In this document: piece by piece, positions 39,762 through 43,579 of the stretch | How the letters are laid out: each line of letters opens with the position of its first letter | Numbering within the stretch: position 1 is the first letter of the stretch | NCBI RefSeq assembly: GCF_000447205.1 | Contig: NZ_AUWY01000071.1 | Span: forward strand, 1 to 64,000 | Reading direction: 5' to 3' | DNA: 64,000 nt | From: Sphingobium ummariense RL-3 | GTDB taxonomy: Bacteria > Pseudomonadota > Alphaproteobacteria > Sphingomonadales > Sphingomonadaceae | The notes under the pieces: generated by a model | The model's database searches: none | What the model saw: only the letters and a program-made list of their open reading frames with translations | What the model was told of the DNA's origin: nothing | Position numbers and translations under genes: made by a program

Positions 39762-40607
39762 TCAGGCGGCCGCGCGCATCCGTGCCAGCGCCTTGCGGTC
39801 GAACCAGCCCGTCGGCAGCGGGCGGGGGCGAAAGCGCGGCAGCCATTCGCCGTATAGGGCGCCCAGCCTCGGCGGCAGCCCGTCCGGCCCCTCCCGCGCC
39901 ATGATGTCGGATATGATGCGGTTCTGGTAGAAGCGCACCGAATAGTTGATCATCCGCTTATACTGCATCCGCCATGTGGACGGCTGGGTCAGTCGGACAG
40001 GCTCGCAGGCGAAACCGGCAGCCTCGCAGGCGGCGACCCGCTCCATCACCCAGCCATGGTCGGTCTGCAGGTCGGTATGCGCCCAGGCCGCCACCAGCCC
40101 GTCGTCGCCGATCAGATCATCGGGCAGGCGCAGTCCGCGCGCACGGATCATACCGACGAACCGCCCCGACAGCGCATAGAGATCGCCAAACAGCCCGCCT
40201 TCGATCTTCAGATTGCGCCGGTACAGTTCGACCTGTCGGCCGTTGACCGGCATGCCGGCAACAGCATTGGCTTGTGGACAGGTCTTCAGCGTCTCCACCA
40301 GCGCATCGATCGATCCCGCAACGATCTCCGCATCGCCATCCAGTAGGACGACGGCGTCCTCGTCCCCCGTCAACAGGGCGTGGATGAAATGATTCCAGGT
40401 GCGCGACTTGCCGCCCGCGGCGATGTCATGAACGATGACGTTCGACCGCCCGCCCGCACGTGTCCGCGCGCGGTCGGCGGTGGCATCGGTCGATCCGTTC
40501 ACCAGGATGTGAAAGATCGTCTCCGCCCGGTCGAGCGGTAAGGAAGAGAGGCACGCGCCGATCCGCCGTTCCTCCTGATGTGCGAAGATGGCGACCGCGA
40601 CTTTCAT
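39762..40607 (-). CDS. Glycosyltransferase family 2
   Basis: A 281-residue GT-A enzyme. It starts with KVAVAIFAHQEERRIGACL, has NGSTDATADRA, and the metal-binding acid motif VVLLDGDAEIV. The C-terminus ends with an amphipathic stretch (YGEWLPRFRPRPLPTGWF). It probably adds a sugar to a lipid, polysaccharide or protein; neither donor nor acceptor is evident. Six bases separate it from the Amt gene on the same strand, so they may be cotranscribed. Confidence 0.85.
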   Translation of the reverse strand: MKVAVAIFAHQEERRIGACLSSLPLDRAETIFHILVNGSTDATADRARTRAGGRSNVIVHDIAAGGKSRTWNHFIHALLTGDEDAVVLLDGDAEIVAGSIDALVETLKTCPQANAVAGMPVNGRQVELYRRNLKIEGGLFGDLYALSGRFVGMIRARGLRLPDDLIGDDGLVAAWAHTDLQTDHGWVMERVAACEAAGFACEPVRLTQPSTWRMQYKRMINYSVRFYQNRIISDIMAREGPDGLPPRLGALYGEWLPRFRPRPLPTGWFDRKALARMRAAA

Positions 40608-40613
40608 GGCGGC

Positions 40614-41885
40614 TCAGCGGAAATCCCAGCCCTGCTCGCCATGCTGCGCAATGTCGAGCCCGTCGGTTTCCTGCTGCGCATCCACGCGCATGGGAATGAC
40701 CATGGAGACGATCAGCGCGGCGATGGCTGAGCCGACCATGGCCCACAGCCCGACGATCGCGATGCCGACCAGCTGGCTGATTAGGGAGCCCGTCAAGGTG
40801 ATCCCCGTATCGAAACCCACGCCGCCCAGCAGCGGCAGCACGAAGATCGGCAGCAGCAGCATCCCGGTAATACCGCCCAGCCCGTGCAGGACGAACACGC
40901 CTGCGGGATCATCGACCCGGTGGCGTAGCGCACCCCAGCCGATGCGGCAGACGCAGGCTGTGACCGCACCAATCAACATCGCCCCACCAGTGCCCACCAG
41001 TGCAGCTGAAGCGGAAATCCCGGCTAGCCCTGCCATCGCACCCGCCGTCACACCGGTTGCGCTCGTCCGACCCGCCAGCAACCGGTCAAGAAATGCCCAG
41101 GCCAGCGCCGCCGTGCAGGCGGCGAAATGCATGTTCAGGATCGCCGCCGCCGCATCGTCGGTCGCGCCCAGCGCCCAGCCGCCGATGATGCCGGCCCAGC
41201 CGACCCACAGCAGCGCGCCGCCCGCCAGGCTCAGCACCGGCGCATGGCCGGGATCGGATGGCTCGCGCCGTCGCCCCGCAATCAGCGCCAGGGCAAGGGC
41301 GGAGAAGCCGGCCGTGCCCTGCACCACAAGTCCGCCCGCGAAATCCATCACTCCTGCGTCCGCGAGCCAGCCGCCGCCCCAGGCCCAATGTGCGATCGGC
41401 GCATAGACGATCAGCAGCCACAAGGGGGCGAAGCCGATTATCCAGCCGAAGCGCGCACGTTCCGCCACTGCGCCGATGAGGAGCGTTCCGCTGAAGAGCG
41501 CAAGCGTCATCTGGAACAGCACGAAGGCGGATTCAGGCACCGTCAGCCCGTCGCGCAGCACTCCCAGCCCGGTAAGCAGGAGGTTGCCGCCGCCTCCCAG
41601 CCAAGCGCTTCCCGGCGCGTAAGCCAGACTATATCCCGCAATTCCCCAGGCGAGCGAAATGCCGGCTATGGCTACCAGGCCCTGTGCCGCGACGGACAGC
41701 GCGTTGCGTACGTTCACTATGCCCGCATGGCGCAGCAGCAGGCCAGGAAGTGCCGCCAGCAGCACCAGCATAGCGCACAGGATCATCCAGCCGGTGTCGC
41801 CACTGTCGGCAGCTGCGACCTGGGCCAAGGCAGGGGAGGGCAGAACCGAGGCGACAAAAATGGGCAGGGCGGCAGCAGGGCGCAT
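40614..41885 (-). CDS. amt: Ammonium transporter (Amt/Mep/Rh family), altered pore residue
   Basis: A 423-residue protein with a signal-like N-terminus and 11 membrane helices. Amt motifs are present: VLFQMTLALFSGTLLIGAVAE (the FQ-gate region), PIAHWAWGGGWL, and DDPAGVFVLHGLGGITG. The second pore histidine lies in VLHGLGG, but the first, normally in DFAGGxVVH, is glutamine here (Q189 in DFAGGLVVQGTAG, codon CAG at 41321-41319). Both histidines are normally needed for proton/ammonia relay. No glnK gene lies next to it, unlike most amtB genes. Confidence 0.88.
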   Translation of the reverse strand: MRPAAALPIFVASVLPSPALAQVAAADSGDTGWMILCAMLVLLAALPGLLLRHAGIVNVRNALSVAAQGLVAIAGISLAWGIAGYSLAYAPGSAWLGGGGNLLLTGLGVLRDGLTVPESAFVLFQMTLALFSGTLLIGAVAERARFGWIIGFAPLWLLIVYAPIAHWAWGGGWLADAGVMDFAGGLVVQGTAGFSALALALIAGRRREPSDPGHAPVLSLAGGALLWVGWAGIIGGWALGATDDAAAAILNMHFAACTAALAWAFLDRLLAGRTSATGVTAGAMAGLAGISASAALVGTGGAMLIGAVTACVCRIGWGALRHRVDDPAGVFVLHGLGGITGMLLLPIFVLPLLGGVGFDTGITLTGSLISQLVGIAIVGLWAMVGSAIAALIVSMVIPMRVDAQQETDGLDIAQHGEQGWDFR

Positions 41886-42042: not shown

Positions 42043-42768
42043 CTAGTAATCCTCACCCCCGCACGAGACGCGTCCGGTCCCCCGATTGTCGACCGTGCAC
42101 GCCGCCTTTCCTGCCACCATCACATCGCCGGAGCCAGCGGCGATCACCTTGGCTGCGACGTCGGCTGTCAGCGCGATGCTGCCGGCGCCTTCATTGCCCA
42201 CAATCGCCTGCCGCGTGCGCAGCCCCTCCGCCAGCACGGCACCCGGTCCGGATACATGGATTTCCGCCACGCCAGCCTGTCCATTGAGCACGGCCTTGCC
42301 GCCCCCCGCCAGGTTCAGGAACAACTGGTCGAGCTGCACGGCACCGACCGTCAGATCGCCGTTGCCGCCGATCGCGATCTGGCCCCGCTGCCCCTTCATC
42401 CGATCAACCGACACCGATCCGCCCCCAGACAGGATGATCCGGCCGATCTCTCCCGTCGACATGCGCAGCGTCGCTCCGCCCGGGGCCTTCGCCCCGGCTT
42501 GTCCTCGTTCCATCGATATGGTCAGCAACCGTCCCGACACATCGACCCGCAGCCGGTCGAGCGCCGCTTGATCTCCTTCCGCCCGGGCGGACACACCGCC
42601 GCCTGTCGTGATGACCACCGTCACCGGCGCATCTACCCGAACCGCGTCAAAGCTCGTGATCGTATAACCGCGTGTCGCCGCCTGCGCCGGCGCGACAAGC
42701 CCCAAGGTCGCGCAGAGCGTCAGGGCGCGCAACGCGCCTCGCCGGATCCCATGACGCTGCTCTTGCAC
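42043..42768 (-). CDS. GIN-domain (DUF2807) exported protein
   Basis: About 241 residues with a signal peptide (LRALTLCATLGLVAPAQA) and a Head-GIN beta-helix domain made of short repeating strands, such as IGRIILSGGGSVSVDRMKGQ and VHVSGPG-like repeats. The putative adhesin domain has no known function. The GTG start at 42768 makes it overlap its neighbour by 49 bases; a TTG at 42732 with GAGG upstream would cut this to 13 and may be the true start. It follows a second GIN-domain gene on the same strand, so the pair probably work together. Confidence 0.75.
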   Translation of the reverse strand: MQEQRHGIRRGALRALTLCATLGLVAPAQAATRGYTITSFDAVRVDAPVTVVITTGGGVSARAEGDQAALDRLRVDVSGRLLTISMERGQAGAKAPGGATLRMSTGEIGRIILSGGGSVSVDRMKGQRGQIAIGGNGDLTVGAVQLDQLFLNLAGGGKAVLNGQAGVAEIHVSGPGAVLAEGLRTRQAIVGNEGAGSIALTADVAAKVIAAGSGDVMVAGKAACTVDNRGTGRVSCGGEDY

Positions 42769-43460
42769 TGTGCCCTGCCTTTCACCGTGACGTTGCCCGA
42801 GCCCATGATGCTGATGTCGACCGGCCCATCCGACGCGAAATCGCTGTTGCCCGATCCAAGGATGGATACCTTGGCCCGACGGACGTGCAATCCCTTGCCG
42901 GCAAAATTGCCCGATCCGGTGACGGAGACCTCGGCCGTTTCGGCAGTGCCGCCCATCGACAGATCGCCCGATCCGGTGATCTCCGCGTCCAGCGTCCCGA
43001 CCTTTGCCGCGCCGACCTTAAGATTTCCTGAGCCGGTCAGCTCCGCCTCCAGCGACGCGCCTTCCGCCTTGTCGACCTCCACGTCGCCTGATCCTGTGAG
43101 AGAGATGTCGTCCAGACGCGGCAGGGTGACGCGGATGGTCGCACCATTGCCCTCGCTCCAGCCGAGGCCGAACCGCTTCTTCCGACCGATTTCCAGCGTG
43201 TCGCCATCCACACGGATGTCGAGCCGCTGCAGTACCTTGGGATCACCCTCGGCCTTCACCGAGAAACCGCTACCGATGGTGATGATGACGTCGTCCGGGC
43301 CGGTGGCATCGATGCCGGTGAAGTTTTTCAGGCTGCCCCAGTCCTGCGGCGCGGTGCTGTCCGATTCGGTGCCATGTCGTTCTGCACCTTGCGAACATCC
43401 GGCCGGAACCAGCGCGAGGCCGACAAGCATCAAGGCGGGCAGGAAAGTGAGGCGAGGCAT
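42720..43460 (-). CDS. GIN-domain (DUF2807) lipoprotein
   Basis: About 246 residues. The signal (PRLTFLPALMLVGLALVPAGC) ends in a lipobox, so it is membrane-anchored. The mature part is a beta-helix in which the unit (S/T)GSG(D/N) recurs at least seven times at roughly 18-20 residue spacing: LTGSGDVEV, LTGSGNLKV, ITGSGDLSM, VTGSGNFAG, LGSGNSDFA, MGSGNVTV, MGSGEARC. The ATG at 43460 is preceded by GGAG; two earlier in-frame ATGs exist. Role unknown. Confidence 0.78.
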   Translation of the reverse strand: MPRLTFLPALMLVGLALVPAGCSQGAERHGTESDSTAPQDWGSLKNFTGIDATGPDDVIITIGSGFSVKAEGDPKVLQRLDIRVDGDTLEIGRKKRFGLGWSEGNGATIRVTLPRLDDISLTGSGDVEVDKAEGASLEAELTGSGNLKVGAAKVGTLDAEITGSGDLSMGGTAETAEVSVTGSGNFAGKGLHVRRAKVSILGSGNSDFASDGPVDISIMGSGNVTVKGRAQCKSSVMGSGEARCAP

Positions 43461-43579
43461 CTGCATCTCCATACTGTGTTGTTCATGTAATACGCCATCT
43501 CGATGGCGGTTCCAACCCCCTTGTTCGTCGGACGAGAGCAGGCAAATATGGCAGCCTTCCACAACAGGATCTCACCGAT

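What the first reader, a model, noticed from the sequence alone, without database searches (positions are those of the whole stretch)
40614..41885. Ammonium transporter with the first pore histidine replaced by glutamine
In Amt proteins two histidines line the pore and relay a proton. The second is kept (VLHGLGG), but the first, at the DFAGGxVVH motif, is glutamine (Q189, codon CAG). Known variants at this position usually carry glutamate in fungal Mep2 proteins. There is also no adjacent glnK. The protein may conduct differently, or act as a sensor.
Basis: partly seen in the sequence, partly recalled or inferred. Interest (0 to 1): 0.55.

Follow-up and report, generated by a model that had tools for sequence, protein, structure and literature searches.

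The report
Rewired-pore ammonium transporter paralog in Sphingobium
A spare copy of a bacterial ammonium transporter has had most of the residues thought to carry ammonia through its pore replaced, travels with a sugar-transferring enzyme instead of the nitrogen-starvation genes, and so probably no longer feeds the cell nitrogen; the single glutamine that drew attention is only a late detail of this.

Summary
In detail: residue 189 (CAG, 41319-41321) of the Amt at 40614-41885(-) aligns with AmtB His168; the second pore His is kept; no glnK lies in the window. But Gln is a tip change: 65 of 67 genus orthologs have His, 2 (this one and G092) have Gln. The larger finding is the clade. In all 67, S219 is Trp, F31 is Arg and F215 is lost; F107 is lost in 62; yet D160, W148 and H318 are invariant. 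The genome also has a normal glnK-amtB with a sigma-54 site; the odd paralog shows none within 250 bp. It lies 6 bp upstream of a GT2 glycosyltransferase, a pairing kept in 67 of 67 loci. Close pairs show purifying selection. In other Sphingomonadaceae loci of this paralog, 22 of 58 read (not a random sample) have rewritten pores, with Arg or Gln at one helix-I position in 18; parsimony needs four changes of state. Best explanation: an Amt that no longer conducts ammonium the AmtB way and works as a receptor or scaffold for a glycan enzyme. Non-conduction is inferred from published mutants; sensing is a hypothesis. New variant of a known kind.

The parts
40614..41885 (-). Amt/Mep/Rh-family paralog, 423 aa, altered pore
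   Evidence: PF00909 259.3 bits against cut-off 23.2; AF2 model mean pLDDT 91.8, best PDB match AmtB 2ns1 Z 65.5, rmsd 1.1 over 397 residues
41319..41321 (-). Q189 (CAG), position of AmtB H168
   Evidence: Gln in 2 of 67 orthologs
40884..40886 (-). H334, position of AmtB H318
   Evidence: His in 67 of 67 orthologs
41343..41345 (-). D181, position of AmtB D160
   Evidence: Asp in 67 of 67
41379..41381 (-). W169, position of AmtB W148 (S1 site)
   Evidence: Trp in 67 of 67
41730..41732 (-). R52, position of AmtB F31 (cytoplasmic hydrophobic barrier)
   Evidence: Arg in 67 of 67 orthologs, 0 of 135 other Amts in that alignment
41727..41729 (-). H53, position of AmtB Y32
   Evidence: His in 57 of 67
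41502..41504 (-). L128, position of AmtB F107 (Phe gate/S1)
   Evidence: Phe kept in 5 of 67
41187..41189 (-). I233, position of AmtB F215 (Phe gate)
   Evidence: Phe kept in 0 of 67
41175..41177 (-). W237, position of AmtB S219 (S1 site)
   Evidence: Trp in 67 of 67, Ser in 135 of 135 other Amts in that alignment; Trp also in 6 loci of another genus read later
39762..40607 (-). GT2-family glycosyltransferase, 281 aa, starts 6 bp after the amt stop
   Evidence: PF00535 30.6 bits against cut-off 23.3; downstream on the same strand in 67 of 67 orthologous loci

Best explanation
This is a conserved Amt-fold paralog of Sphingobium that has left ammonium scavenging. Shown here: the predicted fold and the C-terminal tail pattern are kept; the ammonium recruitment site (S219, F107), the Phe gate (F107, F215) and the cytoplasmic hydrophobic barrier (F31, Y32) are replaced, with an Arg fixed at position 31; D160, W148 and the twin-His are kept (one His being Gln here); it is co-directional with, and a few bases upstream of, a GT2 glycosyltransferase; it lacks the glnK and any recognisable sigma-54 site of the cell's normal amtB. 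Inferred: substrate does not pass as in AmtB, because the gate residue F215 is gone and an Arg lies in the cytoplasmic half of the pore, on the helix-I face where the sensor KsAmt5 is closed by bulky residues and towards the exit that Arg47 of GlnK plugs in AmtB. Hypothesis: it acts as a membrane receptor or scaffold, signalling through the conserved tail, for the co-expressed glycosyltransferase of an envelope glycan. The Gln removes one of two pore histidines in a protein whose pore has already been released from AmtB-type transport.
For: Pore table: S219W and F31R 67/67, F215 lost 67/67, N216 lost 66/67, F107 lost 62/67; W148, D160, H318 kept 67/67, H168 65/67. Tail R384, G393, D395 67/67, H399 66/67. 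AF2 pLDDT 91.8, AmtB fold. dN/dS 0.045-0.255 in the 25 closest pairs with dS above 0.05. GT downstream in 67 of 67, gap 2-12 bp in 64; in the genus the GT is present in 67 of 67 genomes with this Amt against 7 of 27 without (relatedness not controlled). glnK beside 18 of 18 canonical Amts read, in 0 of 66 clade loci (5-12 kb) and nowhere in the window; sigma-54 -24/-12 perfect at 18 of 18 glnK-amtB loci, 0 of 67 here. AmtB F215A/H/E/S/W abolish transport (PMC10433425, passage). KsAmt5 pore closed at Af-Amt1 V23/F26/M30 (PMC5764959, passages), which align with AmtB 28/31/35. GlnK Arg47 blocks the AmtB exit (PMC4274968, passage). Parallel pore rewriting in 22 of 58 other loci read, Arg at 31 or 35 in 15 of 22 against 0 of 36 canonical.
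Against: No transport was measured. F215 was tested in AmtB as A/H/E/S/W; the common states here are V, I, A, L and M, so only part is covered. F107A in AmtB is harmless and S219A raises uptake, so those losses alone do not mean no transport. No fused signalling domain; the GT link is by gene order only, and its homologs in 22 other-genus genomes are not beside an Amt in the stretches read, so the GT does not need it. 27 of 94 genus genomes lack the full ortholog. G019 and G021 have the GT without it. In one locus (L193) the GT match starts at residue 48 and in G080 the GT has an internal stop. Median dN/dS over 1,596 pairs is 0.30 against 0.18 for canonical amtB (153 pairs), i.e. weaker constraint. 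One of 67 upstream stretches has a sigma-54-like site with one mismatch. A glyoxylate-reductase-like gene upstream in 30 of 51 other loci points to a different, unknown context for the ancestor.
Confidence: 0.45

Rival explanations
1. It still conducts ammonia/ammonium, but as a low-affinity, gate-less conduit (for example for efflux or equilibration at high ammonium), which no longer needs S1 or the Phe gate.
For: D160, W148 and H318 kept in 67 of 67 and H168 in 65; AmtB F107A and S219A are active (passages); AmtB H168A supports growth on ammonia (abstract).
Against: The tested F215 replacements abolish AmtB transport; Arg fixed at 31 in the hydrophobic NH3 path; no sign of a nitrogen-regulated promoter.
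Confidence: 0.22
2. It is a regulatory subunit that forms mixed trimers with the canonical AmtB of the same cell.
For: In 21 of 22 altered-pore genomes outside the main clade another Amt is present, and the window genome has one; the tail that may couple subunits in AmtB (passage) is conserved.
Against: Different promoter and 36-40% identity to the canonical paralogs of the genus; no direct evidence on interfaces.
Confidence: 0.1
3. It is a spare paralog under relaxed constraint on its way to loss, and the Gln is one more neutral change.
For: Full ortholog absent from 27 of 94 genus genomes; pore positions F107, F215, W212, D313 vary; higher dN/dS than canonical amtB; the two Gln proteins are not neighbours on the tree and share no other rare residue.
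Against: R31, W219, W148, D160, H318 fixed in 67 of 67, the 66 relatives being 61-76% identical to the window protein; dN/dS well below 1; 67 frames without an internal stop; Trp at 219 also in six loci of another genus; GT pairing unbroken in 67 loci.
Confidence: 0.18
4. The glutamine is an assembly or sequencing error.
For: 65 of 67 orthologs have His; one base separates the codons.
Against: A second genome has CAG at the same codon; the window frame is otherwise clean.
Confidence: 0.05

Closest known systems
Escherichia coli AmtB
   Same: Predicted fold (Z 65.5, rmsd 1.1 over 397 residues); D160, W148, H318; C-terminal tail pattern
   Different: H168Q (here), S219W, F31R, Y32H, F107L, F215I, N216I, D313G; no glnK, no sigma-54 site found; GT2 partner
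Candidatus Kuenenia stuttgartiensis Amt5 (sensor; PMC5764959, passages) and the Shewanella denitrificans Sd-Amt1 receptor (known here by PDB title only)
   Same: Amt fold; for KsAmt5 also substitutions on the same helix-I face (AmtB 28/31/35)
   Different: KsAmt5 keeps its selectivity filter, Phe gate and His pair and has a fused histidine kinase; this protein has changed all three in part and has no fused domain
Fungal Mep1/Mep3
   Same: First pore His replaced while the second stays
   Different: Glu, not Gln; the rest of the pore was not compared here
Canonical-pore paralogs of the same subfamily in Novosphingobium, Aurantiacibacter and other Sphingomonadaceae
   Same: Nearest outside relatives by sequence (42-52% identity); no glnK in the 34 family and genus loci searched
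   Different: Canonical pore in 36 of 58 loci counted; a glyoxylate-reductase-like gene upstream in 30 of 51; a GT beside 4 genus loci

Membership tests
Amt/Mep/Rh superfamily (fold family, PF00909) | Pfam PF00909 above gathering score | tested here: met
   259.3 bits against 23.2
Amt/Mep/Rh superfamily (fold family, PF00909) | Amt fold | tested here: met
   AF2 model, Z 65.5 to 2ns1
Amt/Mep/Rh superfamily (fold family, PF00909) | Invariant Asp at AmtB D160 | tested here: met
   D181; 67 of 67
AmtB-type assimilatory ammonium transporter | Twin-His H168/H318 | tested here: not met
   Q189/H334 here; both His in 65 of 67 orthologs
AmtB-type assimilatory ammonium transporter | S1 site F107, W148, S219 | tested here: not met
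   L, W, W
AmtB-type assimilatory ammonium transporter | Phe gate F107/F215 | tested here: not met
   L/I
AmtB-type assimilatory ammonium transporter | NCBIfam TIGR00836 above cut-off | tested here: not met
   278.6 bits against 343.3
AmtB-type assimilatory ammonium transporter | glnK beside it (usual, not universal) | tested here: not met
   No glnK in the 64 kb window; 18 of 18 canonical Amts of the genus read have one
AmtB-type assimilatory ammonium transporter | Nitrogen (sigma-54) promoter, as the genus's canonical amtB has | tested here: not met
   Best site in 250 bp upstream has 6 mismatches; canonical locus 0. Consensus scan only
AmtB-type assimilatory ammonium transporter | Ammonium transport | not testable with these tools
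   needs an assay
KsAmt5-type sensor Amt | Fused signalling domain | tested here: not met
   423 aa, one Pfam match spanning 33-419
KsAmt5-type sensor Amt | Selectivity filter, Phe gate and His pair retained | tested here: not met
KsAmt5-type sensor Amt | Pore closed by helix-I residues | tested here: inconclusive
   Position 31 is Arg, the right helix face, but no pore radius was computed
Fungal Mep1/Mep3 type | Glu at the first pore His | tested here: not met
   Gln

The most novel reading that the evidence does not exclude
Evolution has pulled apart the two lanes of the Amt mechanism. In this clade the residues of the proton lane (D160, H168, H318) are kept in 199 of 201 cells, while those of the ammonia lane and its gate (F31, Y32, F107, F215) are kept in 7 of 268, and an Arg is set into the pore exit; the same paralog has had its pore rewritten at least four times by parsimony in one bacterial family. 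These would be natural self-plugged Amts, acting as proton- or ammonium-sensing receptors that set envelope glycan synthesis through the partner glycosyltransferase.
Probability: 0.18. Interest if true: 0.8.

Novelty: new variant of a known kind. Interest (0 to 1): 0.55.

Why it matters
The Amt field treats D160, the twin-His, the Phe gate and S1 as highly conserved; PMC7447429 states that fungal Glu is the only variation of the twin-His motif (passage). Here is a natural experiment in one bacterial family with most of the gate and recruitment residues replaced while the proton-path residues stay, plus natural Gln, Phe/Gly and Asn forms of the twin-His. It makes the two-lane model, and the question of non-transporting bacterial Amt receptors, directly testable with existing assays, and warns that the label 'ammonium transporter' may mislead for these genes.

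Tried and rejected
Compensation for the Gln: no residue other than Q itself is shared by the two Gln proteins and rare (4 or fewer of 67) in the clade; not supported. GT as a dedicated Amt partner everywhere: rejected, since homologs in 22 other-genus genomes have no Amt in the 2.7-12 kb read around them. The glyoxylate-reductase-like gene as the key partner of this clade: upstream in 30 of 51 other loci but found in only 5 of 66 clade loci (two of these weak, 27% identity) and not in the window. Sigma-54 control of this paralog elsewhere in the family: no better than shuffled (one locus of 27 canonical and one of 22 altered with one mismatch). PDB sequence search with the GT: no match at E<=1. 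Pore radius and side-chain direction of R52 were not computed, as model coordinates were not at hand. The 22 of 58 is not a frequency: I chose many loci from the low-identity end, 'altered' means 5 or more of 19 chosen positions changed, L298 (fragment) was dropped, and three further canonical genus loci (L172, L174, L180) were not in the count. The large altered group in the tree has long branches, so its single origin is unsure. In the tree one outside row (L043) was entered twice. The lane count was first run with six ammonia-lane positions (28, 31, 32, 107, 215, 314): 39 of 402; I dropped 28 and 314 because normal Amts vary there. Papers on this paralog: (open-access library only) listed none whose title or abstract start concerns it; those papers were not opened.

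Full report
Observation. The ORF at 40614-41885(-) encodes 423 aa and matches PF00909 with 259.3 bits (cut-off 23.2). In the phmmer alignment with E. coli AmtB, Q189 faces H168 and H334 faces H318; MAFFT agrees. GlnK finds no match in the 64 kb window. The host genome (4.75 Mb, 139 contigs) has a second, normal Amt at C49 directly after a glnK gene. The nearest named relatives are Sphingobium naphthae and S. estronivorans (68 and 65% identity), and two same-genus contigs have the same lengths as contigs of those two species, so I take the genus to be Sphingobium.

How unusual is the Gln? Of 94 genus genomes, 77 have a match at E<=1e-90; 67, the window's own included, carry an ortholog at 61-100% identity, and I read all 67. 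Gln stands at the position in 2 (window and G092/L141, both CAG) and His in 65. On a tree built without that column the two are not neighbours (L141 pairs with a His protein, SH-aLRT 96; the forks around the window protein have 81-90), so two separate changes are likely. Among 135 other Amts the position is His in 128 and Glu in 7. In 299 genomes of the phylum the motif DFAGGxVVQ gave two matches: the window and a gene that is not an Amt (SecF by my reading). AmtB H168A supports growth on ammonia but fails to transport methylamine (PMC3647058, abstract). H168E and H168D give currents in proteoliposomes with a higher Km (13-14 against 0.8 mM) and did not restore yeast growth on 1 mM ammonium after 3 days (the passage is cut off there).

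The larger finding. All 67 orthologs share a rewritten pore. S219 is Trp in 67 (Ser in all 135 others of that alignment). F31 is Arg in 67 (in none of the 135). Y32 is His in 57 and Tyr in 2. F107 is kept in 5, F215 in 0, N216 in 1, D313 in 15, W212 in 20. W148, D160 and H318 are kept in 67 and H168 in 65. S219, W148 and F107 delineate the S1 site and F107/F215 the Phe gate; replacing F215 by A, H, E, S or W abolishes AmtB transport, while F107A has no effect and S219A raises uptake (PMC10433425, passages). F31 and Y32 belong to the second hydrophobic region of the NH3 path, while D160, H168 and H318 go with the water wires for H+ (PMC7447429, passages). So in the clade the proton-lane residues are kept in 199 of 201 cells and F31/Y32/F107/F215 in 7 of 268 (from the counts). 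With positions 28 and 314 added, which vary among normal Amts too, the second figure is 39 of 402.

It is a selected protein. The 67 frames have no internal stop. The 25 closest pairs with dS above 0.05 have dN/dS between 0.045 and 0.255; the median over 1,596 pairs is 0.30 against 0.18 for 18 canonical amtB genes (153 pairs), so constraint is real but weaker (Nei-Gojobori, saturating at high dS). The AF2 model (41-row alignment) has mean pLDDT 91.8 and matches AmtB 2ns1 with Z 65.5. The C-terminal tail, which may couple subunits and is ordered in the AmtB-GlnK complex (PMC10433425, passages), keeps R384, G393, D395 in 67 of 67 and H399 in 66. The clade is one side of a branch (SH-aLRT 100) with a long stem of 0.85 changes per site (one outside row was entered twice).

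Regulation and partners. In 18 canonical Amt loci of the genus that I read, glnK lies just upstream of amtB in 18 and a perfect TGGCAC-N5-TTGC sigma-54 site lies upstream of the pair in 18. In the clade glnK is in 0 of 66 loci of 5-12 kb, and none of 67 upstream stretches of 250 bp has a perfect site; one has one mismatch, and the scores otherwise resemble shuffled sequence (the two scans used stretches of different length). In 67 of 67 loci a GT2 glycosyltransferase (PF00535 in the window's copy) follows on the same strand, 2-12 bp after the stop in 64 (6 bp in the window). In L193 (G004) the GT match begins only at residue 48, and in G080 it has one internal stop. In the genus the GT occurs in 74 of 94 genomes: the 67; G026 (60% complete, an Amt fragment beside it); G028, G073, G074 and G076 with an Amt of the sister branch beside it; and G019 and G021 with no Amt near. 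In 22 other-genus genomes the GT stands without Amt in the stretch read; in four of 13 GT loci listed (two genus, eleven family) a flippase-like gene is near (my reading of the sequence). I infer an envelope-glycan role, without proof.

Not only Sphingobium. Among 298 family genomes no match above 52% identity appears outside the genus, but the same paralog, at 42-52% identity, is common. In 58 such loci counted (genus and family; chosen partly from the low-identity end) 36 have a canonical pore and 22 do not (5 or more of 19 pore positions changed). In the 22, F215 is kept in 1, F107 in 11, D160 in 22, H168 in 20, H318 in 18; six loci of one genus also have S219W; two of another have H168F with H318G; two have H318N. 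Helix-I position 35 is Arg in 15 and Gln in 3, and Leu in all 36 canonical ones. On a tree without the pore columns the altered state needs four changes, which starred branches force. 21 of the 22 genomes have another Amt (G240, 95% complete, shows one). A glyoxylate-reductase-like gene lies just upstream in 30 of 51 loci, and about 60 bp upstream of the Amt start in the basal clade member L123.

Mechanism. Positions 28, 31 and 35 of AmtB align with V23, F26 and M30 of Af-Amt1, the positions where bulky residues close the pore of the sensor KsAmt5 (PMC5764959, passages). In AmtB the cytoplasmic exit is blocked by Arg47 of GlnK (PMC4274968, passages). An Arg built into helix I of this paralog could be a permanent plug; this is inference. 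The most likely role is then a receptor or scaffold whose output goes through the conserved tail to the co-expressed GT, with low confidence for the output. Rivals are a gate-less low-affinity conduit, a mixed-trimer regulator, and drift.

Verdict. Observation right, interpretation partly right for other reasons, Gln itself minor. A new variant of a known kind: an Amt-fold protein, not to be filed as an AmtB-type transporter.

Noticed in passing
L053, L072 (Solirubrobacter); L077, L103, L108, L109, L110 (Methanoregula): Prokaryotic Amts with Glu at the first pore His (7 of 135 non-clade Amts), a form that the papers seen here report only for fungi.
   Followed up: no
L286 (G161) and L300 (G240): Amt paralogs of one genus with both pore histidines gone (H168F, H318G) while D160 and W148 stay.
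   Followed up: partly
L176, L177 (G074, G073): GT-linked Amt of a separate branch with its own pore rewrite (F31S/G, Y32W, F107L, F215L, N216T, D313N) beside canonical-pore GT-linked sisters L114 and L173.
   Followed up: partly
L242 (G019): Two ORFs that look like IS21 transposase genes (named by recall from the sequence) lie upstream of the GT where the Amt should be.
   Followed up: no
window 42043-43562: Two DUF2807 (head GIN domain) ORFs, overlapping as called, just upstream of the Amt; relatives lie near many, not all, of the orthologous loci.
   Followed up: no
L284, L285, L293, L294, L296, L297 (one genus): S219W together with W212N and L35R in the Amt paralog of another genus: Trp at the S1 serine again.
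   Followed up: partly
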